Part shown: positions 1 to 60,618 of the stretch, one piece after another
Numbering within the stretch: position 1 is the first letter of the stretch
Layout: every line of letters begins with the position of its first letter
Source: Arthrobacter citreus
GTDB taxonomy: Bacteria; Bacillota; Bacilli; Bacillales; Bacillaceae_G
Reading direction: 5' to 3'
Assembly: GCA_013200995.1 (NCBI GenBank)
Contig: CP053688.1
Span: 2,170,001-2,234,000, forward strand
DNA length: 64,000 nt
Translations under genes and position numbers: made by a program
The notes under the pieces: generated by a model
Told to the model about the DNA's origin: nothing
Seen by the model: only the letters and a program-made list of their open reading frames with translations
The model's database searches: none

Positions 1-1928
1 TCAGCTGGTGATAAATTTGGATTCGCTTGTAGCATTAATGCTGCAACCCCAGCTACGTTAGGTGTTGCCATAGACGTACCTGATAAATTGTCATATGCAT
101 ATTGATATTTTCCAATTTGATCTGCTCCGTGCATATAAGATGGTACTGTAGAGAAAACTGATACACCTGGAGCCGTTACTTCAGGCTTAATATCATAAGT
201 GATTCGAGCGGGTCCACGAGAACTGAATGAAGCTAATTTACTTCCTTCATCTGCTATTTTTCCCATTTCGTCAAAAGAGAACGTTGAAGTAGTACCAAGT
301 TTTGAAGTCATAGAAGTTGCTTGTTCATATGACATTGAAAACGTCGGAACTAAACCATAGCTTGCACCTAAGTATGCTGGAATAAATCCTTCTCCAGCAA
401 CATTGTTCATAATAATTACCGCTACAGCACCATGATTTTTAGCAAATTTAATTTTATCAACAAGTGCAACTGTTCCGCGGTTTACTAATGCAATTTTCCC
501 ATTTACATCAATTGATTTATAGTCAGCATCTGATCCAGTATTTGGTACTTTAACAATTTGTAAAGTTTTACCTTTTAAGCTGTCTACATTGTCTCCAAAG
601 CCTTTACCTAATAATTTTAAATCTGTAGATACATCAGCTGTGCCGTGTAATGTTCCTTTAGACGTAGCAATTTCAGTCTTCGTGTCGTTTGCACCTACAG
701 TAATTGCTAAAGCAGATGCTCCAGGTGCACCTAAAGTATACATTTGATCTCCAGAATTCCCCGCTGCTACAACTGCTGTGACCCCTGAAAGTACGGCATT
801 ATTTAATGCAAGACTTTCAATATTTAATGGGTCATTTGAATTACTACCTAACGATAAGTTGATAACATCCATTCCGTCAGATACAGACTTATCAATACCT
901 GCTAAAACATTTGCAGTAGTACCAGAGCCATATTGTCCTAGCACACGATAAACATATAAATCAGCATCAGGTGCTACACCAGTTACAGCATAATCTGTAT
1001 TATTTTTTCCACGTCCAGCGATAATCCCAGATACATGTGTACCGTGTTCTGTGTAATAAGTCGATCCACTAGTATTTGTTTCAGCAAGACCAGATTTTTT
1101 CCAATCGTCGTATGTTGTTTCCATTGGATCTGCATCATTATCTACAAAGTCCCAACCTTTTACAGAGCTTGGATTAATCGATTTTGGATTTACTCCAGAT
1201 TGTGCACGGTAACCTTTATAAGCATCTGTTAGATCAGGATGGTTATAGTCAATTCCCGTATCAATTACCCCTACTTTGATTCCCTTTCCAGTTATACCTT
1301 CATCATGTAGTTTATTAACTCCTGGAAACACTTCAGTTGCTACTTTCTTTGTATCCCCGGCACCTTCTGTAACTTTTGGTGGCTCTACTTGAATCGTATT
1401 GTTTGGCCAAACAGCTTTAACAGCTTTCGATTTTAATAATGACTTTACTTTATTTGCAGGCAGTTCCATTGAAACTCCATTTAAAGTGCTTGTATATGTG
1501 CGTTTAATTTTATAAACGTTTTTATTCTCTTTTAAGTCATCTTTATAGATTGTTTGTAAATCATTTTTAAATGTTTCTTGAGCTTCTACTGCATTTTGCT
1601 CCGCATCGGATAGTGATAAGCTATTACCATTTGCAGCTTCTTCAATTACTGCAACTTTAGCGGGCTTGTCTTTTAATTCAACGATTACTGATAGATCTTT
1701 AGAACTTTCTAAATCTACTGAAGACGGTAATTGTAATCCATCTTTGCTAGTAACCTCTAATTTTTTTAAGGCTTGGCGCTGCTCTGGTGTAAGTTTAGAC
1801 AGTACTTCTTCAATAGACGATTGTGCTGCAGCCTTTACTAAATTCGTATGATGTTTAACTGGAAATGAACTTAAAATAACACCAGTACTTAAAGTTAATA
1901 TTGCTGTACTTTTAATCAAACGATTCAT
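1..1928 (-). CDS. Secreted subtilisin-family (S8) serine protease, C-terminus beyond the window
   Basis: The gene runs off the left edge, so only the first 642 codons are visible. The ATG at 1928 follows a GGGGGAG ribosome binding site. Residues 1 to about 30 form a signal peptide, then comes an I9-type inhibitory propeptide to about residue 185. The catalytic triad is Asp223 (IDTGIDYNHPDL), His295 (EHGTHVSG) and Ser619 (GTSMATP). A protease-associated (PA) domain is inserted between His and Ser, as in Vpr-type extracellular proteases. A 19-residue insertion after the Asp motif is absent from the three paralogues in this window. Those paralogues end in a dockerin; whether this one does cannot be seen. 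It lies downstream of an HTH-TPR regulator on the same strand, but a terminator separates them, so it probably has its own promoter in 1995-2021. Confidence 0.95.
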   Translation of the reverse strand, partial: MNRLIKSTAILTLSTGVILSSFPVKHHTNLVKAAAQSSIEEVLSKLTPEQRQALKKLEVTSKDGLQLPSSVDLESSKDLSVIVELKDKPAKVAVIEEAANGNSLSLSDAEQNAVEAQETFKNDLQTIYKDDLKENKNVYKIKRTYTSTLNGVSMELPANKVKSLLKSKAVKAVWPNNTIQVEPPKVTEGAGDTKKVATEVFPGVNKLHDEGITGKGIKVGVIDTGIDYNHPDLTDAYKGYRAQSGVNPKSINPSSVKGWDFVDNDADPMETTYDDWKKSGLAETNTSGSTYYTEHGTHVSGIIAGRGKNNTDYAVTGVAPDADLYVYRVLGQYGSGTTANVLAGIDKSVSDGMDVINLSLGSNSNDPLNIESLALNNAVLSGVTAVVAAGNSGDQMYTLGAPGASALAITVGANDTKTEIATSKGTLHGTADVSTDLKLLGKGFGDNVDSLKGKTLQIVKVPNTGSDADYKSIDVNGKIALVNRGTVALVDKIKFAKNHGAVAVIIMNNVAGEGFIPAYLGASYGLVPTFSMSYEQATSMTSKLGTTSTFSFDEMGKIADEGSKLASFSSRGPARITYDIKPEVTAPGVSVFSTVPSYMHGADQIGKYQYAYDNLSGTSMATPNVAGVAALMLQANPNLSPA

Positions 1929-3813: not shown

Positions 3814-3839
3814 TTTAGATGAAACAGTGGAGATCCAAA

Positions 3840-5381: not shown

Positions 5382-5406
5382 CATAAGAAAAGAGGAGTAA
5401 AAAGTT

Positions 5407-10877: not shown

Positions 10878-10886
10878 GAATACACC

Positions 10887-13986: not shown

Positions 13987-16900
13987 TTGAAGAGTAATTT
14001 AGTCATGCCACTCAAGGTTGTTTCTACTAGTTTTATAGCAGCTAGTTTGCTATTTTCTAGTCACACTTTTGCTTCGGTTGATTCTACTTCTCAGAGTGGC
14101 ATATCAAACGTTGAGCAATACTTGAAAAATTTAACAAAAGAGGATCGCAATCGAGTTCATAAAAATGTTGAAACAACGGACCAAGATAAATATTTATCAC
14201 CTAAGCTCGATACGACTAGTAATAAACCTGTGAGCATCATCGTTCAATTTGCACAGGACCCGGCTAAAACGGATGTAAAGAAAAACGAAGAAAATGGCAT
14301 AGCAGTTTCCCTAGACGTTGCTAAAAATAAAGTAGAAAAATCTCACCAAAATTTTAAAAATAAAATCGGACAAGCAAAAAAAGCCATTCCAAATATTCAA
14401 ATTCGTAAAGAATACCGTCAAGCATTTAACGGTGTTGCGATGACTGTACCCGCTAATGAAGTACATACTATTCTCGCGATGGATGAAGTAAAAGCAATAT
14501 TCGAAGATAAAATTATCCATATAGATCCATCTCCATCCGAGACACAATCAAGTGAATCAATTAGTCATTCCCCTGCAGATGATAGTACTGAAAATATTGG
14601 TGCAACAAAGCTTCATGAAGAAGGTATTACTGGTAAAGGTGTGAAGGTTGCTGTAATAGATACAGGAATTGATTATAACCATCCTGATTTAAAAGATGTT
14701 TATAAAGGTGGATATGATTTCGTGAATAACGATTCTGATCCAATGGAAACAACTTACGATGACTGGAAAAAATCTGGAGAACCCGAAACTAATGCGTTAG
14801 CTGGATCTACATACTATACTTCCCATGGAACTCATGTATCTGGAACGATTGCGGGTCAAGGTAAAAATAAAACAGATTATGCAGTGACTGGAGTTGCACC
14901 TGGAGTTGACCTTTATGCATACAAAGTGCTTGGACCATATGGATCAGGAACTTCAAGTAACATCATCGCAGGCATCGATAAAGCAGTAGCAGACGGAATG
15001 GATGTTATTAATCTATCATTAGGTTCAAATTATAATGATCCTCTTGATCCAAATGCAATCGCAATAAATAATGCAGTTTTAGCTGGAACGACTGCAGTCA
15101 TTGCGGCTGGTAACTCTGGTAGTGATTTATATTCACTTGGTTCACCTGGTACTTCTCCGCTAGCTTTAACAGTTGGTGCAAGTGATTTTTCTATGACTAT
15201 CCCTACAGCTACTGGTACGGTTAGTTCAAATGATAATCTATCACTCTCGAATTTAAGACTTCTAGCAAAAAGCTTTGATGATGACTTAAATACATTAAAA
15301 AATCAGTCTCTACCAATCGTATTTGTAGGATTAGGAAATAGTGAAAGTGATTATAACGGCAAGGATGTAAATGGAAAAATCGCACTGATCGAACGTGGAA
15401 TACTTTCTTTAAATGAAAAAGTAATGCTTGCTAAGAAACATGGTGCAAAAGCAGTTTTAATGTACAACAATAACCCAGAAGAAGGCCAAATTCCTCATTA
15501 TCTTGGAAACGGATTTGACTTTATCCCTTCATTTACGCTTACAAATGAACAAGGATTAAAAGTTGTTGATCAAGTAAATCAAGGGAATGCGACATTTACT
15601 TTAAACTCTCTTAGTGAAATAAAAACTGGTGGAGATACATTAGCTGACTTTAGTTCGCGTGGTCCATCAACCAGATTTTATGATATTAAGCCTGAAGTTA
15701 CTGCACCTGGAGTTGCTGTTTTCTCAAGTGTACCAGCTTATCAAAATGGACCAAATCATCTAACTGATTATACAAACGCATACATGAGTGCATCTGGAAC
15801 ATCTATGGCTACACCTCATGTTGCTGGAGCAGTAGCGCTCCTTCTTCAAAAACATCCAGAATATAAACCAGAAGATGTCAAAGCTGCTTTAATGAATACA
15901 GCAGATAAGCTACAAAAAGATTACAGTGTATTCGAAGTAGGTGCAGGAAGAATAGATGTTTATGAAGCAGTACATGCTAACTTGCATATTAAAGTGCTAG
16001 ATAAAACAATCAGTACAAAAGATGGTAATGATATAACAATACCAGATGTTACAGGAGCTTTAAGCTTCGGTCCACAGGTTAATGAGGACAAAGAAAAAAC
16101 AGACTTTCGAGTAGTTTCTATTTCGAATAATAGTAACAAAAAGAAAAAATATAAAGTTCAAGTTAAGTTTAATCAAAATGTAAAAGGTGCTAAAGATGCT
16201 TTAGCTAATAATGTAACTTTAGATGTACCTGATTCAATTACACTTAATGCAAACAAAACAATAAAAATTAAACCAACGATTCACATCCCTGATACAGCAG
16301 AATTTGGTAATTATGAAGGTTATATTTATATTACAGACAATAGTAATCCTGATGAAGTTTATCAATTACCATTTGGCTTCAAGCACTTACAAGAAGGCAT
16401 TAATAATATCAATGCATATGAAGACGCATTCACAACACGACGAGACTTAAATCATAGTTTCCCATCTGGAACAGGTATTGAATTTTCACTTAATAGTTCG
16501 ATGGAAACGGTAGATCTTGTATTAAAAGATGCGAAAACTGGGAAAGAACTCGGACTGGTTGATGCATACGAAGGACTTTTCACAGAGGATACTCCTTTTG
16601 AAACTGAGTACGGATTTAACGGACTTTATAGTGCATTTACAGGTCATAAAGATCATCCAATTTCATATTCAAAAAAGCTTGCACCTCCAGGAAAATATGA
16701 ATTGGAACTAATCGCAACTAACAGAGAAGGTAAAACATTTAAAAAGTCTGATATCTTTTATATTGAAAATACGAACCCTATCATAAAAATGCAACAACCA
16801 GGTGGAGTATATGAAGTAACTGAAGACGGTATGAATGTAAAGGGTAACATCTATGATCAACAAGTAGATATCATGAATCAAAACGGATTTAATTGGGATC

Positions 16901-18114
16901 AGTCTTCTAACATGGTTAACTTAATTAATAAAACAAAATACTCATCAACACCTTTAGCAATTGAAAAAAATGGTGACTTTGAATTTAATTTAGGTCTAAT
17001 AGACGGTAAAGATGTCACAAAAACCACTCTAGATGCCTATGACTATGCACAAAATGGTATGCAAGATCATCCTGATTTCTCATACACACTTGTAAAAAAA
17101 GGACTTTCATATGCAAAACTAGCAGCAAGCAAAAATGATGTAAAATACGGCGAAAATGTAACGCTATCACTTAGTGCACATAATATTAAAGATTTAACAG
17201 GTGGAGAATTTACATTAACATTCCCTTCAACAACTTATGACATCGCAAATGTATCATTAAATAAGGATTTTACTAATTATGCTAAGTCACATGGTTTAAA
17301 TGCTGACCTTAAAATAATTAACCAAACTACAAATAATATCACACTTAATACACAATTAACTGGTGATTCAATCCAGCCAATTCAAACCGCTATGCCATTA
17401 ATCGATATTACATTTAAAGTGAAGGAAAAACCAAGCACATATATTAAATGGATTCAAAACATTGATATTACAAAATCTACAGCATTTTCATTAAATCAAG
17501 CACCTGCTACTATTCTAGGTTTCGGTCAAGGGATCAATATCGTTCCAACTTACTCTCAGCTTGAAGGTGGTATACTTGCGGACGGATTTTTAGATGATTG
17601 GGGTATTTGGTTAGACTACAAAAAAGACTTTTCTAAAGCTGGTATGAGTTTAAAATTAGTTTCAAAAAGTGGTAAGACATATACAGGAGAATTTAACAGC
17701 AGCGCACGCTACTTTGTTAAAAATTTACCAGCTACTAATGAAGAATACGATTTAACTGTCAAAATTCCAGGTCATTTCGATCGACATGTAACTGTTAATG
17801 ATTTATATGACATTTCGAATGGTAATACCGTTGGACGCTTATCTTATATTTTGTACGCACCAGTTATGGGCGGAGACGTAAATAACGATGATATAATCGA
17901 TGTATTAGATGCGGATTATATTAAAACATATTGGGGTACTAACAAGCGCGCAGCTGATATCAATTTCGATGGGCTCGTTGATGCAAAGGATATGAGCTTT
18001 GTGATAAAGAATTATTTAACACCTAACCCTGATGTCTTAGATACTCCAAAAGGTAAAAAGAAAATTAAAGGCGAAACTCTAGAGGATATAATGAAAGATT
18101 TAAATATTCAATAA
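13987..18114 (+). CDS. Large secreted S8 protease with cohesin-like domain and dockerin
   Basis: 1375 residues from the TTG at 13987, eight bases after AGGGGTG; a TTG at 13981 is too close to that site. Residue numbers below count from 13981. Signal peptide to about 35; I9-like propeptide to about 185; S8 core with Asp227 (IDTGIDYNHPDL), His282 (SHGTHVSG) and Ser608 (GTSMATPHVAG); PA insertion about 430-540; Fn3-like segment about 690-800. Residues about 1040-1180 resemble a cohesin (GENVTLSLSAHNIKDLTGGE, later PLIDITFKVKEK). About 1220-1270 is a carboxypeptidase-regulatory-like beta sandwich ending IPGHFDRHV. About 1297-1347 is a type I dockerin with two calcium loops (GGDVNNDDIIDVLD and ADINFDGLVDAKDM). 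A single gene with its own terminator; it probably degrades protein outside the cell. Confidence 0.93.
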   Translation: MKSNLVMPLKVVSTSFIAASLLFSSHTFASVDSTSQSGISNVEQYLKNLTKEDRNRVHKNVETTDQDKYLSPKLDTTSNKPVSIIVQFAQDPAKTDVKKNEENGIAVSLDVAKNKVEKSHQNFKNKIGQAKKAIPNIQIRKEYRQAFNGVAMTVPANEVHTILAMDEVKAIFEDKIIHIDPSPSETQSSESISHSPADDSTENIGATKLHEEGITGKGVKVAVIDTGIDYNHPDLKDVYKGGYDFVNNDSDPMETTYDDWKKSGEPETNALAGSTYYTSHGTHVSGTIAGQGKNKTDYAVTGVAPGVDLYAYKVLGPYGSGTSSNIIAGIDKAVADGMDVINLSLGSNYNDPLDPNAIAINNAVLAGTTAVIAAGNSGSDLYSLGSPGTSPLALTVGASDFSMTIPTATGTVSSNDNLSLSNLRLLAKSFDDDLNTLKNQSLPIVFVGLGNSESDYNGKDVNGKIALIERGILSLNEKVMLAKKHGAKAVLMYNNNPEEGQIPHYLGNGFDFIPSFTLTNEQGLKVVDQVNQGNATFTLNSLSEIKTGGDTLADFSSRGPSTRFYDIKPEVTAPGVAVFSSVPAYQNGPNHLTDYTNAYMSASGTSMATPHVAGAVALLLQKHPEYKPEDVKAALMNTADKLQKDYSVFEVGAGRIDVYEAVHANLHIKVLDKTISTKDGNDITIPDVTGALSFGPQVNEDKEKTDFRVVSISNNSNKKKKYKVQVKFNQNVKGAKDALANNVTLDVPDSITLNANKTIKIKPTIHIPDTAEFGNYEGYIYITDNSNPDEVYQLPFGFKHLQEGINNINAYEDAFTTRRDLNHSFPSGTGIEFSLNSSMETVDLVLKDAKTGKELGLVDAYEGLFTEDTPFETEYGFNGLYSAFTGHKDHPISYSKKLAPPGKYELELIATNREGKTFKKSDIFYIENTNPIIKMQQPGGVYEVTEDGMNVKGNIYDQQVDIMNQNGFNWDQSSNMVNLINKTKYSSTPLAIEKNGDFEFNLGLIDGKDVTKTTLDAYDYAQNGMQDHPDFSYTLVKKGLSYAKLAASKNDVKYGENVTLSLSAHNIKDLTGGEFTLTFPSTTYDIANVSLNKDFTNYAKSHGLNADLKIINQTTNNITLNTQLTGDSIQPIQTAMPLIDITFKVKEKPSTYIKWIQNIDITKSTAFSLNQAPATILGFGQGINIVPTYSQLEGGILADGFLDDWGIWLDYKKDFSKAGMSLKLVSKSGKTYTGEFNSSARYFVKNLPATNEEYDLTVKIPGHFDRHVTVNDLYDISNGNTVGRLSYILYAPVMGGDVNNDDIIDVLDADYIKTYWGTNKRAADINFDGLVDAKDMSFVIKNYLTPNPDVLDTPKGKKKIKGETLEDIMKDLNIQ

Positions 18115-32321: not shown

Positions 32322-32358
32322 AACAAAAAGCAACGTACATTTTCAAATACGTTACTCT
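32322..32358 (-). terminator. Terminator of the orphan gerA gene
   Basis: On the minus strand AGTAACGTA (32356-32348) pairs with TACGTTGCT (32337-32329) and is followed by TTTTTGTTTTC; it overlaps the gerA stop codon. Confidence 0.75.
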
Positions 32359-45945: not shown

Positions 45946-48900
45946 TTACTTTAATCCTAATTGAGTTAAAACATTATCTAAAGTTACACCTTTATAAGAA
46001 GTCTTAGCTTTAGGCGGATTTGGTACCGAACTATTTTGTGAACCAAAGTTTTTTACAACGTAATCCATATCCTTTTTGTCTACTACACCATCGAAGTTCA
46101 AATCAGAACCTGAGTGGCTCGTACCCCAATAAGTTTGTAAATTTAATGCATCTAAAATATCAATAACGTTATCTTTATTTGTATCTCCAGCTTTTGTATA
46201 AGGTATGCCAAATTGTAATCTTCTGCCCAGTTGTTCTCCTCGAACTTCATCTGACATTACAAATTGCTTATACACTGTAAAATGACCTGGAGCATCTATT
46301 TTTATTGTATAAGGTTTTGTATCAACATTCAGTGGTTGTGCAATATAATTTCCATTTTTAGTTACAAAGTAAGCATCCACAACATCTTTTCCATCATATG
46401 AAGTAACAGTTACTTTAGCACCAATTTTTTGCTGATCTAATTTGAAGTTCGTCCCACCAGTAGCAGGATCAAGCGCTCCTTCTAATTTCATTTGACTCTC
46501 AAATCGAGAATAAGTTTTCTTTAAATTCATTGTTTCCATATAACTGTACACTTTATTTGTTACTACATTTGATTGATCAGTCATCGATCCAGTAAATTCC
46601 ATGCCATACGCGTATGCTGGGAAATCAGTCAAATATTCTTTATTAGTTACTAAGTCGAAATTGACTAATTTCATATCTTCTGGTAAAGGTGTATTACCTA
46701 AATAGTTAAACGTAATTGTATAATTTGTAAAGTATTGTGAAGTTTCTGATGTAACAGATACTTGTGCATCACCGTATTGCTTTACGGCATCACTTACAAC
46801 GACATTTTTAATCGTTCCTAAGTCTCTATTATCTTCCCTTAAGATCGGAACTATAATCTTCGCGGTTTTTAAATTTTTCATATTATTTGAGCGAAGAGAA
46901 TAATTAATTGTATCTCCAGTCGAAGCTGTTTTTTTATTTGCTTTTAAGTAATAATATGGATAGGTTTCAGGAACAAACACTGGTTTTAAAAATGCTTGAG
47001 CATTTGATGTAAAGTTACTTGCAGCATCATTTGCATAAAACGATGTTTTATAAGGAAATATCCCCTTTAGTACTTGTATTTGATCTTTGTAGTCTCCATT
47101 TTTATCTGTGTTTATTGGAGGATATGGATTACCCTTATAGTTATATACACGAACTTGATTGCTAGACTGATCAATTGGAATTCCTGCTCGATTTGCATCT
47201 GCTACTTCAGGATCATAAACATTGATATTAAAGTCATACAAAAATTGTCCTTTTGAATCAAATTGACTGTCTTTATACTCAATAACTTTTTGATCTAATG
47301 AATCAAAGCTTGAAGTCATCGTTGGTTGGCCTTTTTCATAAATGAAATCAGCTGATTTAGAGAATGTTTTACCTTGATCATTTGTACCAATCATTCTTAA
47401 TTTATAGTGTCCTGTTTTCGCTAGTACAGGGAAATCACTAATAGGATTTTTTGAATCACCAGTGAACGGGTAATAATACCCATTAAAGCCATTTGGTACT
47501 CCAGAAACTATATTTTCAGGTAAACCACGCGTATCATATGATGCAAGCCAACCTACATCTTCACCAGTGTCTGCATCTTGGACTACGAAATCGATCGTTC
47601 TCATATGAGATTTTAATGATGTTTTAAAATTCATTGATGTTTGTGCTCTATCTGGTACAGCCGTATCACCTGAATACATAGGATTAATGATTGTAAGTGT
47701 ATCAATCCCCTCATTTACTACTCGTCCACCAAATGGAATTTGATAAGTTTCAGTCGGATCAGCAGTATTTGTAAAAACGATATATCCTTCATATGTGCCT
47801 TTTTCTGCTGTTTTAGGAATAGTTAAATTAAACTTAATATTCTTTGAGCTAATTCCACTTAATTTAACTGAAGTTGGTCCAGTTAATGTTACATTATTTT
47901 TAGCAGCATCTAATGATCCTCTTAAACCAGTTTGGAATTTAACATTTACATTAAATGTTTTCGCTTTTTCACTTCTATTTTTCAATGTAACAGTTCGGTC
48001 ATCAGTAATATCTTGGTCATTAAATCCAAATGAACCGAAGCTAATGCCACCTGTTAATTCTTTAATCGTTTTTAATTTACCTTTATCATTTATTGTCGGA
48101 GTTTTATCATTAACTTGTAGTTCCACATTTGAGTGGATAGCTTCATAAGCATCAACTCGTCCGCTTCCAATTTCAAACACACTGTAATTTTTTGATAAAG
48201 AATCAGCTGTGTTCATTAAGATTGATTTTACATCAGCTGGTTGCAAATCTTTGTTCGACTGTAATAACAATGCAGATACCCCAGCAACATAAGGTGTTGC
48301 CATTGAAGTTCCAGATAAGCGTTCATATGCATATTTATAATCTTCTGGTTTTGAACCATCTACTGTTTTATTGTTTACATAAAACGGAACAGTAGACATA
48401 ATCGAAACACCAGGTGCTGTAACTTCTGGTTTAATATCATAGTTTACACGAGAAGGACCTCTTGAACTGAACGCAGCTAATTCATCGCTAGTTGAATGGA
48501 TTATTGAATAGTCCCCAAACGAGAAGTTTGCATTACCTCCTTGAAGCGCTGCTAAAATTTGTTTCCCATCACTGTTTGATACTGTAAACGATGGAATTGC
48601 ATCGACGGATTCACCTAAAAATGCATTAATTGGGCCTTCAGCTTGGTTTAGCTCATCGTTATACATAATGACACCGACTGCGCCTCTTGCTTTTGCATTT
48701 TTAATTTTATCAATTAATGCATTCGTTCCGCGCTTAATTAATGCAATATTTCCATTTAGATCCTTGCCGGTAAAATCAGCTGGTATTCTAGCTAGACCTA
48801 CATCTACTAATGTGAACTTTTTTCCTTTTAATTGAGTTAAATCATCCGAGTAATTTCTTGCTAACTGTCTTAACGTGTAATTTGTACCATTTTGTACACC

Positions 48901-50139
48901 TGCATATTGATAAGCATTAAGTGAAATTGATGATGCACCAACTGTTAACGCTAATGCAGAAGCACCTGGTGATCCTAATGTATACATTTGGTCTCCAGAA
49001 TTACCCGCTGCAACAACTGCCGTTACACCACTTAAAACAGCATTGTTTAAAGCAATTGATGTCGCATAAAGTGGATCATTTAACGAGTTACCTAATGACA
49101 GATTAAGAACATCCATACCATCCTTCACTGCTCGATCTATCCCAGCGATGATCGAATCAGTTGTTCCGCTTCCATATGGACCTAAAACTCGGTAAGAGTA
49201 AAGAGCCGCTTCTGGTGCTGCACCAAGCATTTTGTATTCGCTATCCGCTTTACCACGACCACCGATAATACCAGCAACATGTGTACCATGTTCTGTATAA
49301 TAAGTAGTTCCACTACTAGAATTAGTTTCTGGTTGTCCTGATTTCTTCCAATCAGCATAGGTTGTTTCCATTGGATCATTATCATTGTCGATGAAATCAT
49401 ATCCGCCCTTATAAGCATCCTTTAAATCTGGATGATTATAATCCATACCCGTATCCAGAATACCTACTTTAATACCTTTACCTGTGAATCCTTCTGCATG
49501 TAAGCGATCTAAACCATCATAAGGCGTGTAGTTTCCAACTTTTGCTTCATCAGCTTTTAATTGTTCGTTATCATCTGCAGTTGGTGGTTCAACTGAAAAC
49601 GTTTCATTGCTCCAAACTGTTTTAACTGCTTTAGATTTTAATAGATTTTTTATTTGATTAGCTGGTAGGTTCATAGAAACACCATTAAAAGCATTTTTAT
49701 ATGAACGAGTAATCTTATAATCTACCTTCTTATTATTGTCATCAATTAATAGTTGATCTACATCTTGATTAAACGTTTGATGATCTTGATCAATTAATTT
49801 TGTAGATTCATCTGTCGTTAACGTTTGCCCTTCAAGACTCGCTTGAAGCTGAGCAACTTTTTTAGGCTGATTTGCAAATTGTACGATGACTGATGTTTGT
49901 TCAGTAGACGTTTGATCAATATCAGCCGGAATTTGTAGACCTATTTCTTCATTAGCCGAAAGCTGGTTAAGTGCATCTCTTTGTTGTGGAGTTAAGTTTG
50001 CAAGAATATCTTCAGTCTTTGAATAGCCTGCAGCTTTTGTAAGATCTAAATCCCCAATAGATCCCAAAATAAAACTAGATGATAGAGCAACTAAAGATAA
50101 GCTTTTAACAATTTTACGATTGTAAGACTTTTTCCCCAT
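45946..50139 (-). CDS. Large secreted S8 protease with cohesin-like domain and dockerin
   Basis: 1397 residues from the ATG at 50139, six bases after GGAGG; an ATG at 50145 directly abuts that site. Numbers count from 50145. Signal peptide to about 39; I9 propeptide about 83-187; S8 core with Asp231 (LDTGMDYNHPDL), His286 (EHGTHVAG) and Ser614 (GTSMATPYVAG); PA insertion about 440-545; Fn3-like segment. A cohesin-like stretch begins KKTASTGDTINYSLRSNNMK, then a beta sandwich (GAKVTVTSYDGKDVVDAYFV ... IDAPGHFTVYK). The C-terminal dockerin has AGDTNKDNVIDILDAL and SDLNFDGVVDKKDMDYVV. It has its own terminator and lies between the two LysR copies. The fragment at 61031 is most like its propeptide. 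Confidence 0.95.
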   Translation of the reverse strand: MGKKSYNRKIVKSLSLVALSSSFILGSIGDLDLTKAAGYSKTEDILANLTPQQRDALNQLSANEEIGLQIPADIDQTSTEQTSVIVQFANQPKKVAQLQASLEGQTLTTDESTKLIDQDHQTFNQDVDQLLIDDNNKKVDYKITRSYKNAFNGVSMNLPANQIKNLLKSKAVKTVWSNETFSVEPPTADDNEQLKADEAKVGNYTPYDGLDRLHAEGFTGKGIKVGILDTGMDYNHPDLKDAYKGGYDFIDNDNDPMETTYADWKKSGQPETNSSSGTTYYTEHGTHVAGIIGGRGKADSEYKMLGAAPEAALYSYRVLGPYGSGTTDSIIAGIDRAVKDGMDVLNLSLGNSLNDPLYATSIALNNAVLSGVTAVVAAGNSGDQMYTLGSPGASALALTVGASSISLNAYQYAGVQNGTNYTLRQLARNYSDDLTQLKGKKFTLVDVGLARIPADFTGKDLNGNIALIKRGTNALIDKIKNAKARGAVGVIMYNDELNQAEGPINAFLGESVDAIPSFTVSNSDGKQILAALQGGNANFSFGDYSIIHSTSDELAAFSSRGPSRVNYDIKPEVTAPGVSIMSTVPFYVNNKTVDGSKPEDYKYAYERLSGTSMATPYVAGVSALLLQSNKDLQPADVKSILMNTADSLSKNYSVFEIGSGRVDAYEAIHSNVELQVNDKTPTINDKGKLKTIKELTGGISFGSFGFNDQDITDDRTVTLKNRSEKAKTFNVNVKFQTGLRGSLDAAKNNVTLTGPTSVKLSGISSKNIKFNLTIPKTAEKGTYEGYIVFTNTADPTETYQIPFGGRVVNEGIDTLTIINPMYSGDTAVPDRAQTSMNFKTSLKSHMRTIDFVVQDADTGEDVGWLASYDTRGLPENIVSGVPNGFNGYYYPFTGDSKNPISDFPVLAKTGHYKLRMIGTNDQGKTFSKSADFIYEKGQPTMTSSFDSLDQKVIEYKDSQFDSKGQFLYDFNINVYDPEVADANRAGIPIDQSSNQVRVYNYKGNPYPPINTDKNGDYKDQIQVLKGIFPYKTSFYANDAASNFTSNAQAFLKPVFVPETYPYYYLKANKKTASTGDTINYSLRSNNMKNLKTAKIIVPILREDNRDLGTIKNVVVSDAVKQYGDAQVSVTSETSQYFTNYTITFNYLGNTPLPEDMKLVNFDLVTNKEYLTDFPAYAYGMEFTGSMTDQSNVVTNKVYSYMETMNLKKTYSRFESQMKLEGALDPATGGTNFKLDQQKIGAKVTVTSYDGKDVVDAYFVTKNGNYIAQPLNVDTKPYTIKIDAPGHFTVYKQFVMSDEVRGEQLGRRLQFGIPYTKAGDTNKDNVIDILDALNLQTYWGTSHSGSDLNFDGVVDKKDMDYVVKNFGSQNSSVPNPPKAKTSYKGVTLDNVLTQLGLK

Positions 50140-50680
50140 TTTCATCCTCCATACCCCTGTTTATTACATATGTTAGTGTTCATGAATAACGATACGATAA
50201 TTTAATTGTGAAGCACTGATATAGCTCTCATTAAATCTTGTACGATTTCATTACAAACTATCTATGTTATTACTATTATTAAAGAAATGGGGACTGGAAG
50301 TAAATTGGGGAAATTTGAAATATTTTCCTTATTACAATCGTCATATTCGTATTTTCTATTTTCAAAATAAATGTCAAACACTCTCATTTATTGTAGAAAA
50401 ATTTGATTGCATTAATACATTCTTAATTTTTTTAATGTAATTTGTAGAATTTTGTTACCAAAAATAAACTTGCATTTGGGGGAAAAATAAAAATATCATT
50501 ATATAACATAGATAATATACGAATTTCTCATTTTATTTTTTTTCAGAATACTACATTTATCCTATATTCTTCCTTTAAACTTCGTAAGTAAAAATTCTTA
50601 ATTGTTGAATACACACTTAAAAAAATGTACTTTTTATATATTACAAATCGTGTTCTAAGCTCACATACTAAAGTCTCCTA
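50140..50680. other. Upstream region of the 1399-residue protease
   Basis: About 540 bp of AT-rich sequence with no ORF. It should hold the protease promoter; several T-rich stretches are present, but I cannot single one out. Confidence 0.35.
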
Positions 50681-52152: not shown

Positions 52153-55100
52153 TTATAGCTTGATAGACATAATACTTGTCCAGTCACCATAGATTTTTTG
52201 TGACCCAACCATTTTGTAAGAACGGATTTTATAATAGTATGTTTTACCTTTACTTAATCCTTTGTTCGTGTAATTAGTTGTTGTCACGCTAGTTAGGTGA
52301 GAATATGATCCTGTTTTTGAAGTTGATTTAACAATTTCATATCCTGTTGCACCTGATACTTTTGACCAAGTTAATTTCACAGAATCTTTTCCAGCTTTCG
52401 TTAATTTCGCATTTGATGGTTTAGCAGGAATTGCTACCCATTTCGCGTAAATTGTTGTGTTTGCTGTAACACGATCTTTTGCAAAGTTCCAAGCTACTTT
52501 ACCTGCAGCATCTTTGTACCATCCAAGGAATACATAGCCTTTTCTTGTTGGTGACTTCGGTTGGCTAATCGTCCCATTGTATATTGCTGTTTTGGAAGTA
52601 ACTGAACTTCCTCCATTACTGTTAAATTTAACAGTATACGTACTAATGTTCCATTTTGCATAAAGTGTTATATTACCTGTAAGTGTGACAGAATTCCCTA
52701 CTGGCGTTTTTAATGAAGCATCTTTATACCATCCAGCAAATGTATAACCTGTTTTTGTTGGTTTTGGTAAATTAATGATGCTATTGTAATTCGCAGTTTG
52801 AGCAGGAACTGTAGAACCACCATTGCTTACATAACTTACTTTATACGAATTTATTTTCCACTTCGCATATAACGTAGTGTCGTTTGTCACTTTATCTTTC
52901 GCAAAGTTCCAAGCAACATTACCTGCAGCATCCTCGTACCATCCAACGAATGTGTAACCAGTTCTAGTTGTTGTCGGTGCAGTGATACCAGTGTTATAAT
53001 TTGCCGTTTTGTCAGCTACTTCGCTTCCACCATTACTATTAAAGTGAACTGTATAAGAGTTAACATTCCACTTAGCATACAGAACCATGTCACCAGATAC
53101 TTTGTCAGTTCCAAAGTTCCATGGCGTTTTTAATTCTGCATCTTTATACCAACCAGCGAATGTGTAGCCTGTTCTTGTTGGTTTTGTTTCATCAATTAAT
53201 GAATTGTATTCAGCTTTTACTGAAACTACAAGTCCAGCATCTTGCGTGTCATAGATGACAGTGTATTTTGCTGGTTTCCATGTTCCGTAAAGTGTTTTTA
53301 CAGAGTAAATTGAATTTGTGAAATCCCAAGGGATTGTACGATCTGCATCAGCGTACCAAGTCAACTCATAGCCATGAACAGTTGGTGCTGTAATTCTGCG
53401 TGCTACAATTTGATCTTTTGTTCCAGATTTTACTTCAGTTGGAGCATCACCTGGAAGGACGAAATGCACATTATATCCATTTCCTACTTTTTGAACTACT
53501 GTCACATCAGCATAGTCAGTAGCATTAATCGTAATTGTATAATCTCTCGTTCTTGTGAACAAGCTCTTATCTAGGGTAATCGTACGTTTAACTTTGTCCA
53601 CACTGTATTTTGATCCATCTACCGCACTACCATTTAGTTTAATGCTTGTAATCTCATTTGCCCATTCATTATCACTGAACTCTAGCACCATATCGTTCCC
53701 TAGTACATTATCCGTTGTATCTGCTGTCACAACAGAACCAGCTAACGCATATTTCGCATAAAGTGTGATTGGTTTTGTTACAATCGTATCAAAATCATAT
53801 GGCATTGTTAGATTTTGATCTGTATACCAACCATAGAACTTGTAGCCAACTTTTGTTGGATCAACTGGTTTTGTCGCATTTCTGTCTACGATTTGAGCTG
53901 GAACTGGATCTCCACCATTTGATGCAAAAGTTACCGTATAACCGACAACTTGATCTGTTACTACAACATCTTTATAACCTTCTGATACAATCGTTACATT
54001 GAACTTTTGTCCAGCTGTGAAAAGATTTGCTTTAAGTGTAATATTATTATTTGAGATCGTGTAATCATTATTTAGAACTAATGTTTTAGAGCCGATTTGC
54101 ACAGCCTTAATATTGTTTTTCCATGTGCCATCATCAGTAAATGGTAATGTAATATCACTACCTACAATGTTTCCAGCAACGTCCTTATTTACCGTTGGTG
54201 GTACTTTCATCCAACATAGATAGAAAGTAGTGTTATCTGTAAGCACTTTAGGATTTGTTGTAATATCAGACTTCTTATCACTTGAATTAGCTGCATCCAA
54301 ATATAGGTCATTACTGATCGTTAAATTTCCATTTGTTACATGTGTTGAAGCTGCATTCATATTTAGCGCATTTGTTTTTCCATTGACGATCATATCGGCA
54401 AGATATGTGTCAGTTGCATTCTTTAATGTACCGCCGTTTAAATCAATATGACGTCTATATCCAAGTTGTACACCTGGTATTGTGACAATTTCGCCTGTTG
54501 TCGATGTTACAGTTAAATCATACCCTTTGACCGCTCCAATATTTCCAAGGGACGGCATTTCACTGAATGCAAACTTTTCTCCTAACTTGGTTTGACCTGC
54601 TTTAACAGCTTGTTCATGTGTAGCTGTTGTAAAGGATAGAACTCCGTTATTTCCATTAGACGACAAGCTATAAGTACTTGGGTCTAATGTATACTGTGTT
54701 GGTGTCGATTCAGTTGAGCCATCGCTCTTGAACTGATAAAATTTCGCTTCAATTTTTGCAATTTTATCTTTACTAGTTAACCAAGAAACATTCGTTAAAT
54801 AATCTGGGATGTTGATTTTTAAATCACCTTCACCAAGTACCCATCCTTTTCCAGTTATTGCTGAGTTACTTCCGTCAAATTTTAATCCGTTCGGGTTCGC
54901 TTTATCAACTGGTGAATAACTTTGAGTCGTATTCATTTGCCATTTTGCATAAACAGTTTTGTCCTGGGTTAAAACAGCTGATGGATCCCACTGCGTTATA
55001 CCTTGTGGCTCGTTATACCAACCAAGGAATTTATAACCAGGTTTCGTTGGTGCAGGTGTGTTGGTTGAGATTAAATCACTATTCGGACCATTTGATCTAC

Positions 55101-58100
55101 TTGAACTCGCTTTGTATCCCACTGCCATCTGGTTTAACACTGACCCACCTTGGCTGTCAAAATTAATCGTATATCCAACTGGCTGTTGACCTGTGTAAAC
55201 AGGATCATATCCTGCGATGACATCTGGATAATTCGTTCCATCTGCACCTACTGAGCCAATTGTAAATCTGTATAGTTGTGGCAGATAGTTTTTTCCACTT
55301 GGGTTGACAGTCGCTGCACCATAGGTTGAAGTATTTTTCGAATCAAGAGTCGAATCTGTCATAAATGTCTTTGCATTGAACGTAATTTGACCTGGTTTAC
55401 TAATGTCATAATATTTTTGATTCGAATCTGGATTGATTAAATTACTAATATCCATGCTCTTACCATTGGTAGTTGTTACAATCACCTTATTGATTCCATT
55501 TCTCCAGTTCGCATCTTCTTGGAAGCTTAATGTTAAATCCTTTCCAATATGCGCTACTGTTGGGTCAGTGATGATTGGAACTGATGGCGTCGGAATTGGT
55601 ACTGCTGATACTGTTAAACTTTTAGTAACATCTTGGTATCCTGTTGCCTTCACTGTAACTGTGTAATTCGTTGCAGTCGGGAATAATGAGCCTGGGAACG
55701 TAATTTTTGATGGCATAGTTTGCTGTGCACCATTTGCATCATAATACGTATATGCCGGGTTGATTGTTACTAAATTCGTTACATCCGTTGAACCTAGCAT
55801 AATTTTTGTAATTGATTTTCTCCATAATACATCATCAACAAACACCGTGCTTGTAGGAGATAGAGAGATTGTTGCCCCACTTTGCAAGTCTTGTAACTTT
55901 GGTGTTGATGCAATTGTTTGTGCTGGAGCTGTAAAATTAAGCTTTTGCATGACCTGCTGTGCCGTTTCACCTGCATTTAACGTGATTGATCCTGCATAGT
56001 CCGTTGTAAAAGTTGTATCTTTATCTACTGTTAATTGGGCAGTTGGAACAGTTAAACCTGCATCAATTGCACTTTGATTTTGCTGACCAAAGTTTTTAAA
56101 GATGAAATAGAAATCATTATAATCAATTCCATAACCTGAACCTGTAGGCTTAATCCAATAAATATCTTGATCACGGTTCGTGTTCAAGAATGCTGTTTTG
56201 TTTGCTACATTATTTGCCGGATTATTCAAATTATTTAGGTTTTTATACTGATAATAAACATCGATTTCCTTCATCAAATCTTTCATGTCGATTACGTTGT
56301 CACCGTTAACATCTCCACCTAAAAGAATTGGGAATAGACCTCGAATATCCTTTACAGTACCTGATTGATAACCGAATTTATTTTCACCAATTACAGGTGT
56401 TTTTTCATATCCTTTAAAGTGTCCTGGTACACTTGCTTCAACGGAATACGGCTTGTCACTAACATCCATCGTCAGAGCATAATAAGGATTGATAAACGTA
56501 TAAGCCATCGTATTATTAAATGATGTTGGTTGGTCCGTTGTAAATTTTTTACCTTTATCATCCGTAGCAGTTACCTTCGCACCTGAATCAACCGTGAATT
56601 GAGGATATTGGTTATTTACATTATTTCTTGCGAAAGATTCCGCAGCCACTTGCCCTCTAAGTACAGAGATATTCTGTCTTACATAAGGTACATTTGTTGG
56701 GAACCAAGGGACTCTTGTATCTTCACCTGACAAAGTTAAATTCGCTTGTAGTAATTGATATTCGAATTGCCCTGTTATTGGATCAGGACTGTTATAGGTC
56801 ACATCTGCTTCTATAATCGGCATATCATGATCAAGTGCACCCGCTGGACCTATATTTGAAATCGTCAAATCTGTTGTTAAGCCAATTCCATAAGTTGGAT
56901 GTTTATACGGTTGACCTACCGTAAGAACTTTAGTCGGATCAATACCTTTACTGATTAAATAATTTTTATACTCATCCGTAAGGCGAATATTACTGAATTC
57001 ATAGACATTGTTACTATTCAGCAAAAATTTACCGCCGGTCATTCCTACTCCATACTTTGTTGTCATTGTCATTTTGAATGGTTTATTATTATCAACGACT
57101 AATTTATCTTCGTTACCTGGTCCTGCGTCTACTCCATTAGATGAAGTTAACGTAACATACGGATTTCCCTTTTTAATGAAAAAATAAGTCTGTCCGTTTA
57201 CAGTTCCATCACTTTCACCTGAATAATCCTGAGGCTCAATATAAAATTCACTACCCATTTTATTTGCTACATCCTCAGCAGACACCCCAAAATGGAAGCG
57301 ACCTTTCGCATCAGTATCAAAGTAAACTGTTGGGAACGAACTATCTTGGTAACCTATAACACTGTTCAAAGCTTGATCAACTGGAACTGGCGTTACGCCA
57401 TCCTTAGGGCTTGGCACTGACGTTTCTCCATTGTTTTTCATCACGTCTATGTTTGAGTCATAAACTGTACCATGGAATCCTTTTATTTCTTGTCCAGGCA
57501 AGTACCCTGTAGTATCAATTTCATATATTCCACCCTTGGAGTCCTGATCCATCTTCATTGTTGGTGGTGTACCGTCAACATAGACCGTATCTTCCGCTGT
57601 GTAACGTTTTCCATCTTTACCAGTTGCGATCAACTCCAGTGAGTAAGCACCTTCTTTTAGCACTTCCACATTGTTTGAGATGCCAGAACTGTCATATGTT
57701 CCATCGTATTCCTTTGTAAATGGAAGGTAAAATCCATTAAAAAGTGTTATAAGTGGTCCATATTGAACACCTGGGATCAAATTACTACCGGTTGATAACG
57801 TGTTAGCTATACCGATATATTTTCCATCCTTGTCTTTTATGGCAATATATAAGTCGTTCATTTCGTTATTTACCGATAAATAATAAGAAGATAGATTTCC
57901 CTCTGACGCTGCTTTTATCGCTACTTGGAATTTATTAATTCCTTTTTCCGCAACTGTAATCGTAAACGGAATACGATAAGTTTCTGATGGGTCCTTTGAG
58001 TTTACAAGGTTAATATAACCTTCGTAAGTACCATCTAATGAATTTGACGGAACTGTAATTTTTGCCGTTGCTTTAACAGTGCTTCCTCCACCAACATTAA

Positions 58101-60618
58101 TAGAGTTTACATTTTTCCCATCGACAGAAAAATCGATTTTCACATCATTTCCTGTGCCAGGACCTACTTTATTCGATCCAGCAAATTTTGATGTAATAAA
58201 TGCAGTACTTACATTGAATGTTTTACTACCAGTTCCTAGATTTGAAACATTAAAGTCTTTTGAAGAAACTACATCATCAGAACCGTTCGTTGCACCTTCT
58301 CCTCTACCTTTAAAACCATAGAACATGCTTCCAGTCAGGTTATCAACTTCATGAGCTGTTGATGCATCTGAAGGATTGTCAAAAGTAACTGTTTTATCTA
58401 AAACTTGGACTTTAACATCTGCTGCTATTGCACGAGCCGGATCAACACGTCCAGCACCTACTTGATATACGCTATAAGTCTTTGAATCTGTGTCAATACT
58501 CTTAGCTGTATTCATTAATGCCGTCTTAACATCCGCAGGTGTATAATCTGGATGTGCAGCTAAAACTAAAGCTGAGATCCCAGCAACATGTGGTGTTGCC
58601 ATTGAAGTACCAGACATAATCTGATACGCAAGTTTATAATCATGAGTTTTATCGTTTTGTGGCTCCCAAATATCGTATGGAGCTGTTGAAGAAATATCAA
58701 CACCAGGAGCTACAACATCAGGCTTAATTGTCCAATCTTTAACTGGACCTGTAGAACTAAAGCTTGCCAACTCATCTCCACTCTTACTAATTGGTGTATC
58801 AAGTGTAGATGGGAAAGTAATGTTAGCTGATTTAGGGTCTTTTTTAATTGCATCTGACAGAGCTTGTCCTTGTGATTGTGTCAATGAAACTGAATAAACA
58901 TTATCCATACTGACACCTAAGTAGTTAGGGATATATCCTTGGCTATCTGGATCATCCGTATTATCCCAGATAATCATACCCGCTGCTCCAGCATTTTTAG
59001 CATTTGACATTTTTGTTTGTAAGTAGTCAACTCCACGCTTAACTAGAACAAGTTTACCTTTCACATCAATTCCACTATAATCTGCCACGCTTCCTAAACC
59101 TACATCGACGATTGGTAGTGATTGCCCTTTATAAGCATCGTCTGATTGTGAAAAGTCTTTACCGAATAAACGTGCTTTATAAGAAACTGAACCATTCTTA
59201 ATTGTCATTGTTGCAATTTGTTCAGGTATCGTACTTGCGCCAACAGTAATTGCTAATGCTGAAGATCCTGGTGAACCAACTGTAGCTTGCCCAGGACCAG
59301 CATTACCTGCTGCAACATCACAGACAACACCTGCTAATGTAGCATTGTTAATAGCGATACTAGTTGGATAATATGGGTCATTAATATTTGCACCAAGAGA
59401 AAGATTAATCACATCCATGTGATCTTTTACTGCCAGGTCAATACCATTTAATACAGATTCTGTTGTACCATGTCCACCCGGTCCTAATACACGATAGCTA
59501 TAAAGGTCTACATCTGGAGCTACCCCATTAGCCGAATAAACATCATTATTATTCGTTGTATTCGCTGCAATCGTCCCAGCAACGTGAGTTCCATGAGACG
59601 TAATATATGGCTTATAATCTGCAGGAGGTGTCCCAGAGATTACATCAGGATCCGCTCTATCCGCTAACCAATCCTCATAAGTTGTTTCCATTGGATCATG
59701 GTCATCTACGTATTTAACGTTTCCGTTTGCATCTAATCCTTCATTATTAACTAAGTCATGTCCACCTTTATAAACAGCCTTCAAATCTGGGTGATTATAA
59801 TCAATACCAGTATCTAATATACCAACCTTAACCTTTTGTCCTGCACGTGGACCTGATTTAATGATACCAGTATTACCTTCAGCTTGAAGTTTATCAATAC
59901 CTAAATAAGAAAGCCCACCTGTTGGCTTACCGGCAGATCTACTTGTCGCTACAGCTTGGGAAGCATTATCTGCTGGAACAGAAAATTCTACTTCCGACCA
60001 AATAGAAGCAACATCTGGATTTTCAGCAAGCTTTTCTACTTGATTTGCAGGTAGAGTTAAAGATACTCCATTAAAGGCATCTGTGAATTCACGCGTAATA
60101 CCCATAGAAGTATTTACAGACTTCCCGCCAACTATTTGCGTCTTAGGCTGTCCATTCACAAAACTTTTAAATTTAGCATGAGAATCTTTAACCCTTTGTT
60201 GTGCATCAGAATATTCGTTTGCAAATGCTTGACTATTTGCAGTTGCGCTCCCTTTCGCAAGTGATTGCTTTATGATTTGGATCTTTGCTGGATCTTCTTT
60301 AAATTGAACAATTACATTAATCTTTTTTGAACCTGTTAAATCCTTTTTGTCCACATGAATTTTTTGAGCGTTATCTGCCCCAGTAAGCTTATTAATATTT
60401 GCTTTTTGTTCAGCAGTAAGGCTGTCAAGAATACGGTTTACTTCTTTTGCATTAAAAGTATTGTTCGATGAATCTTGCTGATCTGTTTTAATCTCAGCAT
60501 TTAAACTTGCAAAACTTTGAGGAATCGCAACGTTTAAAAACATCGAACTCAACGCAAAGACTGAGATCATCTTTTTAGTTGGCTTCATACTCTTTCTTGA
60601 TAATTTTCTCTTTTTCAT
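52153..60618 (-). CDS. Giant multidomain secreted S8 protease with dockerin, InlB-type repeats and fibronectin III
   Basis: 2821 residues. Signal peptide to about 38; I9 propeptide to about 215; S8 core with Asp269 (LDTGIDYNHPDL), His342 (SHGTHVAG) and Ser672 (GTSMATPHVAG); PA insertion about 500-600; a cohesin-like region about 1165-1300; beta sandwich ending VPGHFKGYE; dockerin about 1435-1520, whose two calcium loops are split by an insertion of about 30 residues (GGDVNGDNVIDMKDL ... IDYNDFYFIFKNFG). Then come Hb-interaction/DUF1533-like repeats (FPTATNYTVTVKATGYQDV, and two more) and seven InlB/Flg_new beta-grasp repeats (pattern YTVxFNSNGG ... GYTFxGWY ... LYAKW), one at about 1814-1895 and six at 2226-2726. 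A fibronectin III domain ends the protein. There is no LPXTG or SLH anchor. Confidence 0.95.
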   Translation of the reverse strand: MKKRKLSRKSMKPTKKMISVFALSSMFLNVAIPQSFASLNAEIKTDQQDSSNNTFNAKEVNRILDSLTAEQKANINKLTGADNAQKIHVDKKDLTGSKKINVIVQFKEDPAKIQIIKQSLAKGSATANSQAFANEYSDAQQRVKDSHAKFKSFVNGQPKTQIVGGKSVNTSMGITREFTDAFNGVSLTLPANQVEKLAENPDVASIWSEVEFSVPADNASQAVATSRSAGKPTGGLSYLGIDKLQAEGNTGIIKSGPRAGQKVKVGILDTGIDYNHPDLKAVYKGGHDLVNNEGLDANGNVKYVDDHDPMETTYEDWLADRADPDVISGTPPADYKPYITSHGTHVAGTIAANTTNNNDVYSANGVAPDVDLYSYRVLGPGGHGTTESVLNGIDLAVKDHMDVINLSLGANINDPYYPTSIAINNATLAGVVCDVAAGNAGPGQATVGSPGSSALAITVGASTIPEQIATMTIKNGSVSYKARLFGKDFSQSDDAYKGQSLPIVDVGLGSVADYSGIDVKGKLVLVKRGVDYLQTKMSNAKNAGAAGMIIWDNTDDPDSQGYIPNYLGVSMDNVYSVSLTQSQGQALSDAIKKDPKSANITFPSTLDTPISKSGDELASFSSTGPVKDWTIKPDVVAPGVDISSTAPYDIWEPQNDKTHDYKLAYQIMSGTSMATPHVAGISALVLAAHPDYTPADVKTALMNTAKSIDTDSKTYSVYQVGAGRVDPARAIAADVKVQVLDKTVTFDNPSDASTAHEVDNLTGSMFYGFKGRGEGATNGSDDVVSSKDFNVSNLGTGSKTFNVSTAFITSKFAGSNKVGPGTGNDVKIDFSVDGKNVNSINVGGGSTVKATAKITVPSNSLDGTYEGYINLVNSKDPSETYRIPFTITVAEKGINKFQVAIKAASEGNLSSYYLSVNNEMNDLYIAIKDKDGKYIGIANTLSTGSNLIPGVQYGPLITLFNGFYLPFTKEYDGTYDSSGISNNVEVLKEGAYSLELIATGKDGKRYTAEDTVYVDGTPPTMKMDQDSKGGIYEIDTTGYLPGQEIKGFHGTVYDSNIDVMKNNGETSVPSPKDGVTPVPVDQALNSVIGYQDSSFPTVYFDTDAKGRFHFGVSAEDVANKMGSEFYIEPQDYSGESDGTVNGQTYFFIKKGNPYVTLTSSNGVDAGPGNEDKLVVDNNKPFKMTMTTKYGVGMTGGKFLLNSNNVYEFSNIRLTDEYKNYLISKGIDPTKVLTVGQPYKHPTYGIGLTTDLTISNIGPAGALDHDMPIIEADVTYNSPDPITGQFEYQLLQANLTLSGEDTRVPWFPTNVPYVRQNISVLRGQVAAESFARNNVNNQYPQFTVDSGAKVTATDDKGKKFTTDQPTSFNNTMAYTFINPYYALTMDVSDKPYSVEASVPGHFKGYEKTPVIGENKFGYQSGTVKDIRGLFPILLGGDVNGDNVIDMKDLMKEIDVYYQYKNLNNLNNPANNVANKTAFLNTNRDQDIYWIKPTGSGYGIDYNDFYFIFKNFGQQNQSAIDAGLTVPTAQLTVDKDTTFTTDYAGSITLNAGETAQQVMQKLNFTAPAQTIASTPKLQDLQSGATISLSPTSTVFVDDVLWRKSITKIMLGSTDVTNLVTINPAYTYYDANGAQQTMPSKITFPGSLFPTATNYTVTVKATGYQDVTKSLTVSAVPIPTPSVPIITDPTVAHIGKDLTLSFQEDANWRNGINKVIVTTTNGKSMDISNLINPDSNQKYYDISKPGQITFNAKTFMTDSTLDSKNTSTYGAATVNPSGKNYLPQLYRFTIGSVGADGTNYPDVIAGYDPVYTGQQPVGYTINFDSQGGSVLNQMAVGYKASSSRSNGPNSDLISTNTPAPTKPGYKFLGWYNEPQGITQWDPSAVLTQDKTVYAKWQMNTTQSYSPVDKANPNGLKFDGSNSAITGKGWVLGEGDLKINIPDYLTNVSWLTSKDKIAKIEAKFYQFKSDGSTESTPTQYTLDPSTYSLSSNGNNGVLSFTTATHEQAVKAGQTKLGEKFAFSEMPSLGNIGAVKGYDLTVTSTTGEIVTIPGVQLGYRRHIDLNGGTLKNATDTYLADMIVNGKTNALNMNAASTHVTNGNLTISNDLYLDAANSSDKKSDITTNPKVLTDNTTFYLCWMKVPPTVNKDVAGNIVGSDITLPFTDDGTWKNNIKAVQIGSKTLVLNNDYTISNNNITLKANLFTAGQKFNVTIVSEGYKDVVVTDQVVGYTVTFASNGGDPVPAQIVDRNATKPVDPTKVGYKFYGWYTDQNLTMPYDFDTIVTKPITLYAKYALAGSVVTADTTDNVLGNDMVLEFSDNEWANEITSIKLNGSAVDGSKYSVDKVKRTITLDKSLFTRTRDYTITINATDYADVTVVQKVGNGYNVHFVLPGDAPTEVKSGTKDQIVARRITAPTVHGYELTWYADADRTIPWDFTNSIYSVKTLYGTWKPAKYTVIYDTQDAGLVVSVKAEYNSLIDETKPTRTGYTFAGWYKDAELKTPWNFGTDKVSGDMVLYAKWNVNSYTVHFNSNGGSEVADKTANYNTGITAPTTTRTGYTFVGWYEDAAGNVAWNFAKDKVTNDTTLYAKWKINSYKVSYVSNGGSTVPAQTANYNSIINLPKPTKTGYTFAGWYKDASLKTPVGNSVTLTGNITLYAKWNISTYTVKFNSNGGSSVTSKTAIYNGTISQPKSPTRKGYVFLGWYKDAAGKVAWNFAKDRVTANTTIYAKWVAIPAKPSNAKLTKAGKDSVKLTWSKVSGATGYEIVKSTSKTGSYSHLTSVTTTNYTNKGLSKGKTYYYKIRSYKMVGSQKIYGDWTSIMSIKL

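What the first reader, a model, noticed from the sequence alone, without database searches (positions are those of the whole stretch)
13987..18114. Cohesin-like domain and dockerin in the same secreted protease
The segment at residues about 1040-1180 (GENVTLSLSAHNIKDLTGGE, then PLIDITFKVKEK) has the pattern of a cohesin, and a canonical two-loop type I dockerin follows at 1297-1347. Cohesin-dockerin pairs normally join scaffoldins to enzymes in cellulosomes of anaerobes. A single protease with both could form chains with itself or with its paralogues in this window. The dockerin is direct; the cohesin call is by pattern.
Basis: partly seen in the sequence, partly recalled or inferred. Interest (0 to 1): 0.75.

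Follow-up and report, generated by a model that had tools for sequence, protein, structure and literature searches.

The report
Proteases ending in cohesin-X-dockerin tails
A Bacillus relative carries 56 secreted proteases that each end in both halves of the plug-and-socket used to build cellulosomes, with no multi-socket scaffold protein found in its genome; whether the two halves join is open, and most of the sequence evidence is against the textbook way of joining.

Summary

Interpretation partly supported. Chains among paralogues cannot be the general role. The cohesin's canonical dockerin-binding sheet is polar and, on average, less conserved than the opposite sheet in all five sequence sets, though its central strand is conserved among orthologues. 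The dockerin's recognition helices covary with X and the C-terminal helix, not detectably with that sheet. My best reading: one rigid, Ca-dependent tail with a mainly structural dockerin and a diversified cohesin (0.45). Homotypic chains stay open (0.28) and are easy to test.

The parts
13987..18114 (+). Secreted Vpr-like S8 protease with Coh-X-Doc tail (1,375 aa, TTG start)
   Evidence: signal-like N-terminus by eye
14239..14523 (+). Inhibitor_I9 prodomain (residues 85-179)
   Evidence: PF05922, 37 bits
14632..15948 (+). Peptidase S8 catalytic domain (residues 216-654); triad D225, H280, S606 read by hand from the Vpr alignment
   Evidence: PF00082 215 bits; alignment to 8jmw, E 5.1e-103
15337..15558 (+). 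PA insert (residues 451-524)
   Evidence: PF02225 52 bits
16093..16374 (+). Fn3-like domain (residues 703-796), below the Pfam cut-off; overlaps the end of the Vpr alignment
   Evidence: PF06280 18.4 bits, cut-off 27.6
17104..17547 (+). Cohesin module (residues 1040-1187)
17548..17868 (+). X-module (residues 1188-1294)
17869..18021 (+). Dockerin (residues 1295-1345), two Ca loops
18022..18111 (+). C-terminal tail (residues 1346-1375) with helix 1365-1371, covarying with dockerin helix 3
45946..50145 (-). Paralogue, 1,399 aa, same architecture; tail 45949-46989 (cohesin 46516-46962, X-Doc 45949-46515)
3..1928 (-). Paralogue cut by the window edge; the full gene lies in L022 and has the XDoc tail
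52153..60618 (-). Giant relative (2,821 aa): S8 + PA, then Shr-like_HID and Listeria-Bacteroides repeats, fn3; no Pfam cohesin or dockerin match

Best explanation
A secreted Vpr-like subtilase has acquired a cellulosome-type Coh-X-Doc tail that works as one Ca-dependent rigid unit. The dockerin caps the X-module and is clasped by the C-terminal helix; its main job here is structural. The cohesin sits on this stalk as a variable module that differs between paralogues and is kept within each orthologous line, so that paralogues share a catalytic core and a stalk but present different recognition surfaces (to substrates, wall polymers or partners). Shown: the modules, their folds, the copy number, the conservation pattern. 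Inferred: rigidity (from pTM), the structural role of the dockerin, the recognition role of the cohesin.
For: High pTM in two paralogues 25% identical over the tail (0.84, 0.85). Coupling analysis on 317 sequences: dockerin-tail pairs 6 of the top 50 (1.3 expected), X-dockerin 6 (4.7 expected). Partial Mantel tests on 59 sequences: the dockerin's recognition positions go with the tail (0.249, 0 of 200 permutations) and with X (0.134, 1 of 200), not with the cohesin's 8-3-6-5 sheet (0.043, 32 of 200). Among 56 own paralogues mean identity is 71% for the S8 N-half and 70% for the dockerin but 24% for the cohesin, the lowest of eleven segments, while the twelve closest relatives keep 56-86% of this cohesin. 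Outward positions of the canonical sheet are less conserved than those of the other sheet in five of five sets and three of three choices of positions and are mostly polar.
Against: Cohesin-X pairs are depleted in the coupling analysis too (2 of the top 50, 14.6 expected) although they are neighbours in the chain, so the method has little power for the cohesin and the depletion of cohesin-dockerin pairs (2, 6.9 expected) proves little. Strand 3, in the middle of the canonical sheet, is well conserved within the four relative groups (0.69-0.91) but not among paralogues (0.19), as paralogue-specific binding would give. Residual COH-DOC correlation 0.17 in the 56 paralogues. Dockerin helix 1 keeps a hydrophobic face (V/I at 1306, L/I at 1310 in most) that would want a partner. 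In/out positions were assigned by hydrophobic pattern, unclear for strands 4 and 8, and no cellulosomal cohesin family was run as a control.
Confidence: 0.45

Rival explanations
1. Scaffoldin-less chains: the dockerin of one molecule binds the cohesin of the next copy (homotypic, or among close paralogues), giving protease polymers, perhaps on top of Vpr-type fibrils.
For: Both halves always go together, with Ca ligands kept: 56 of 56 intact copies carry both. In five single-copy genomes the only cohesin and dockerin found are in the same protein. No multi-cohesin protein was found in the own genome. Closest solved dyads are type II XDoc and type II cohesins, which do bind each other (PMC5141474, passages). 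Strand 3 conservation among orthologues. The protease core is a relative of Vpr, which forms active fibrils (PMC10657474).
Against: No covariation of cohesin sheet and dockerin helices; sheet polar and less conserved on average, where type II interfaces are described as predominantly hydrophobic; median cohesin identity 21% against 71% for dockerins among paralogues.
Confidence: 0.28
2. The dockerin is an address tag for one shared receptor outside the protease family, for instance a surface protein or the single-cohesin, CBM35-bearing protein P0122 (L021) of the same genome.
For: Dockerin is as conserved as the catalytic core. P0122 holds the strongest PF00963 match of the genome (40.2 bits) and has no dockerin match near it. 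Known dockerin-bearing S8 and cysteine peptidases of cellulosome makers are thought to be recruited to the cell surface (PMC12484212, passages).
Against: In the five single-copy genomes no cohesin outside the protease was found with PF00963 or the family profile. It does not explain why each protease also carries a cohesin.
Confidence: 0.17
3. The cohesin-dockerin pair is an inherited fossil of a scaffoldin end without binding function; the expansion is driven by the protease domain.
For: No positive evidence for binding was found; catalytic motifs are intact in 55 of 56 copies.
Against: Ca ligands are kept at all ten positions in 54 or more of 56 copies, the dockerin at 70% identity, and orthologues keep the cohesin.
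Confidence: 0.1

Closest known systems
C. thermocellum CipA C-terminal Coh9-X-DocII (PDB 3kcp, 4fl4)
   Same: Same three modules in the same order in one chain; best Foldseek match to the whole tail (E 5.5e-19)
   Different: 15% identity, rmsd 10.8 A over 280 (other angles between modules); CipA is a non-catalytic scaffoldin with many cohesins; here a protease with one
Non-cellulosomal cohesins of C. perfringens glycoside hydrolases (PDB 2vo8, 2jh2, 2w1n)
   Different: There, as recalled, cohesin and dockerin sit on different enzymes; here both on one protease
Dockerin-bearing peptidases of cellulosome makers: C. thermocellum S8 protease with double dockerin, R. flavefaciens cysteine peptidase with X-dockerin (PMC12484212, passages)
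   Same: Secreted peptidase with a C-terminal dockerin, in one case XDoc; an intramolecular clasp is described for the first
   Different: Those have scaffoldins to bind and no cohesin of their own, as far as the passages tell
Vpr of Bacillus (PDB 8jmw; PMC10657474, abstract, first fifth of the text, sections 9 and 12 read)
   Same: Closest solved relative of the protease part (residues 99-783, E 5.1e-103)
   Different: Vpr (803 aa) ends after its assembly domains, without Coh-X-Doc; fibril formation untested here
Sub_N-Subt-PA-Dockerin architecture NP_691157.1 (PMC2605481, passages)
   Same: An S8 protease with PA and dockerin was listed in 2008
   Different: No cohesin is mentioned in that paper (0 occurrences); no expansion described in the passages

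Membership tests
Cohesin (PF00963) | Score over the curated cut-off | tested here: met
   29.4 and 31.4 bits, cut-off 24.1; not listed in whole-protein hmmscan; 10 of 44 paralogue tails match at E<=1
Cohesin (PF00963) | Jelly-roll cohesin fold | tested here: met
   second paralogue
Cohesin (PF00963) | Binds a dockerin through sheet 8-3-6-5 | not testable with these tools
   indirect signs mostly against, strand 3 for
Dockerin (PF00404) | Two Ca-binding loops with ligands at 1, 3, 5, 9, 12 | tested here: met
Type II X-dockerin dyad | Ig-like X-module packed on the dockerin | tested here: met
   X-Doc couplings
Type II X-dockerin dyad | Binds a type II cohesin | not testable with these tools
   no complex prediction available
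Cellulosome | Scaffoldin with several cohesins | tested here: not met
   no ORF with two cohesin matches (24 matches, E<=1) or (61 matches, E<=1)
Cellulosome | Dockerins on glycoside hydrolases | tested here: not met
   58 of 62 dockerin matches over the cut-off lie in S8 ORFs; the other four are in ORFs of 140, 185, 230 and 794 aa, the last a frameshifted copy
Vpr-like S8 protease | I9 prodomain, S8 core with PA insert, catalytic triad | tested here: met
Vpr-like S8 protease | Assembles into fibrils | not testable with these tools
   second assembly domain is beyond the alignment

The most novel reading that the evidence does not exclude
A scaffoldin-free, self-complementary protease system: each subtilase is at once enzyme and one-link scaffold, and its own cohesin and dockerin make Ca-dependent homotypic chains, with paralogues drifting apart so that some twenty cohesin types (21 clusters at 40% identity in one genome) assemble without cross-talk.
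Probability: 0.22. Interest if true: 0.88.

Novelty: new variant of a known kind. Interest (0 to 1): 0.62.

Why it matters
Cohesin-dockerin pairing is taken as enzyme-to-scaffold joining. Here both halves sit on one secreted protease, in genomes where that protein holds the only pair that could be found, and one lineage has multiplied it to 56 intact genes. Either the pair works without a scaffold, or one of the best known protein pairs has been reused for a structural job. Both answers are of interest, and small recombinant domains can decide. Single-copy genomes give the cleanest test.

Tried and rejected
Whole-protein hmmscan missed the cohesin; a tail-only scan and a genome search found it. 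NCBIfam gave no useful name beyond the S8 core; best hits lie below their cut-offs. The strongest PF00963 match of the genome is not in a protease (L021, P0122); looked at and set aside as a possible receptor. Reading the cohesin as degenerate was rejected because relatives keep it. Coupling analysis as proof of no cohesin-dockerin contact was rejected: cohesin-X pairs are depleted as well. VIA lists say nothing on families that are absent. Six of 73 fetched loci were left out of the alignment for structure prediction (L092, L093, L111, L129, L131, L136: partial or long matches, or a contig end; L131 for no noted reason). Literature: searches listed no paper on this family; ('Gottfriedia' or 'dockerin', 638 papers) listed none with both words among the top 10, which rank papers with more of the terms first. 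Subscription papers and preprints are not held; Peer et al. 2009 on non-cellulosomal modules is recalled, not seen.

Full report
What is there. The ORF at 13987-18114 encodes 1,375 residues with an I9 prodomain, an S8 catalytic domain with PA insert and a dockerin. Its closest solved relative is Vpr (8jmw, residues 99-783, E 5.1e-103), a secreted subtilase reported to form active fibrils (PMC10657474; abstract, first part, sections 9 and 12 read). The tail holds a cohesin over the Pfam cut-off when scanned alone (29.4 bits) and in the genome search (31.4 bits), though not in the whole-protein scan.

Scale. In the own genome PF00404 has 67 matches, 62 over the cut-off; 58 of the 62 lie in long S8 ORFs. 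56 ORFs of 1,334-1,460 aa are intact, 234,126 bases or 4.28% of the genome; four giants bring this to 4.88%. Nine of the 56 are on contig C2. The cohesin profile gives 58 matches at E 2e-19 or better: the 56, a frameshifted copy and one giant. PF00963 gives 24 matches at E<=1, 15 over the cut-off; the strongest is in a non-protease with CBM35. No ORF showed two cohesins. The genus is probably Gottfriedia, from the names of close homologues (inference).

Distribution. The XDoc profile matches 17 of 60 relatives at E<=0.001: 13 of 13 genomes of the genus (3 to at least 56 copies; own genome capped at 56 scored candidates), and four others with 18, 10, 2 and 1. In 199 genomes drawn from the order, 16 match at 1e-20, in 10 of 97 genera; at most 17 candidates per genome were scored. 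Five genomes of five genera have one copy. In each, the family cohesin profile and PF00404 find one match at E<=0.01, in the same ORF; PF00963 finds the same cohesin in two of five and nothing else. For G099, 17 of 18 candidates were scored. All five tails align over all modules; some Ca-loop residues and the recognition helix differ. Exact triad motifs were seen in three of five; L144 and L145 miss one pattern each.

Conservation. Mean identity among the 56: S8 N-half 71%, S8 C-part 66%, dockerin 70%, X 31%, cohesin 24% (median 21%), the lowest of eleven segments. The twelve closest relatives keep 56-86% of this cohesin, the next nine compared 39-47%. At 40% identity the cohesins fall into 21 clusters. 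L017 and one L032 gene share 94% of the S8 core but 43% of the cohesin, which suggests module exchange.

Does the dockerin meet the cohesin? In cellulosomes the dockerin binds sheet 8-3-6-5, and in type II both helices take part with a mainly hydrophobic interface (PMC5141474, passages). Here the outward positions of that sheet are mostly polar and less conserved (1.04 against 1.66 bits over all sequences; mean identities 0.58/0.77, 0.45/0.67, 0.69/0.80, 0.51/0.72 and 0.20/0.34 in five sets). My first two lists of positions differed for strands 4 and 7; with three other choices the order holds in 15 of 15 comparisons. Against this stands strand 3, 0.69-0.91 in the four relative groups. Dockerin recognition positions covary with the tail (0.249, 0 of 200) and X (0.134, 1 of 200), not with the sheet (0.043, 32 of 200) nor clearly with the cohesin core (0.075, 19 of 200) (59 sequences). 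Coupling analysis (317 sequences, effective 156) agrees for tail and X, but is weak for anything with the cohesin. Across the 56 paralogues a residual COH-DOC correlation of 0.17 remains (X-DOC 0.26, DOC-tail 0.41).

Conclusion. The domain calls are right, the chain idea is untested and mostly not favoured, and the real surprise is the scaffoldin-less family itself.

Noticed in passing
window 3819-7660, 9780-13650, 32352-33803, 41118-44700: Several gene sets that look by eye like gerA-type spore germination operons, near the proteases; not tested with a family search.
   Followed up: no
window 44884-45783 and 50860-51759: Two very similar LysR-like regulators (by eye) on either side of the protease at 45946-50145.
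   Followed up: no
window 52153-60618; L031, L041, L043: Four giant S8 relatives (2,315-2,859 aa). The two scanned with Pfam (window and L041) carry Shr-like_HID and Listeria-Bacteroides repeats; L031 keeps a clear cohesin.
   Followed up: partly
L021:4480-8214 (-), P0122: Secreted-looking protein with CBM35, Big_2 and the strongest PF00963 match of the genome, no dockerin match.
   Followed up: partly
L038, L045, L048, L056: Four S8 ORFs of 1,177-1,191 aa with only a weak half-dockerin match (second repeat), below the cut-off.
   Followed up: no
L029:532-4761 (-): A copy split by a stop into ORFs of 614 and 789 aa.
   Followed up: no
L027, L039 (C1) and L055, L058 (C2): Near-identical copies on the chromosome-size contig and the 250-kb contig (S8 core 96-99%), pointing to recent exchange.
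   Followed up: partly
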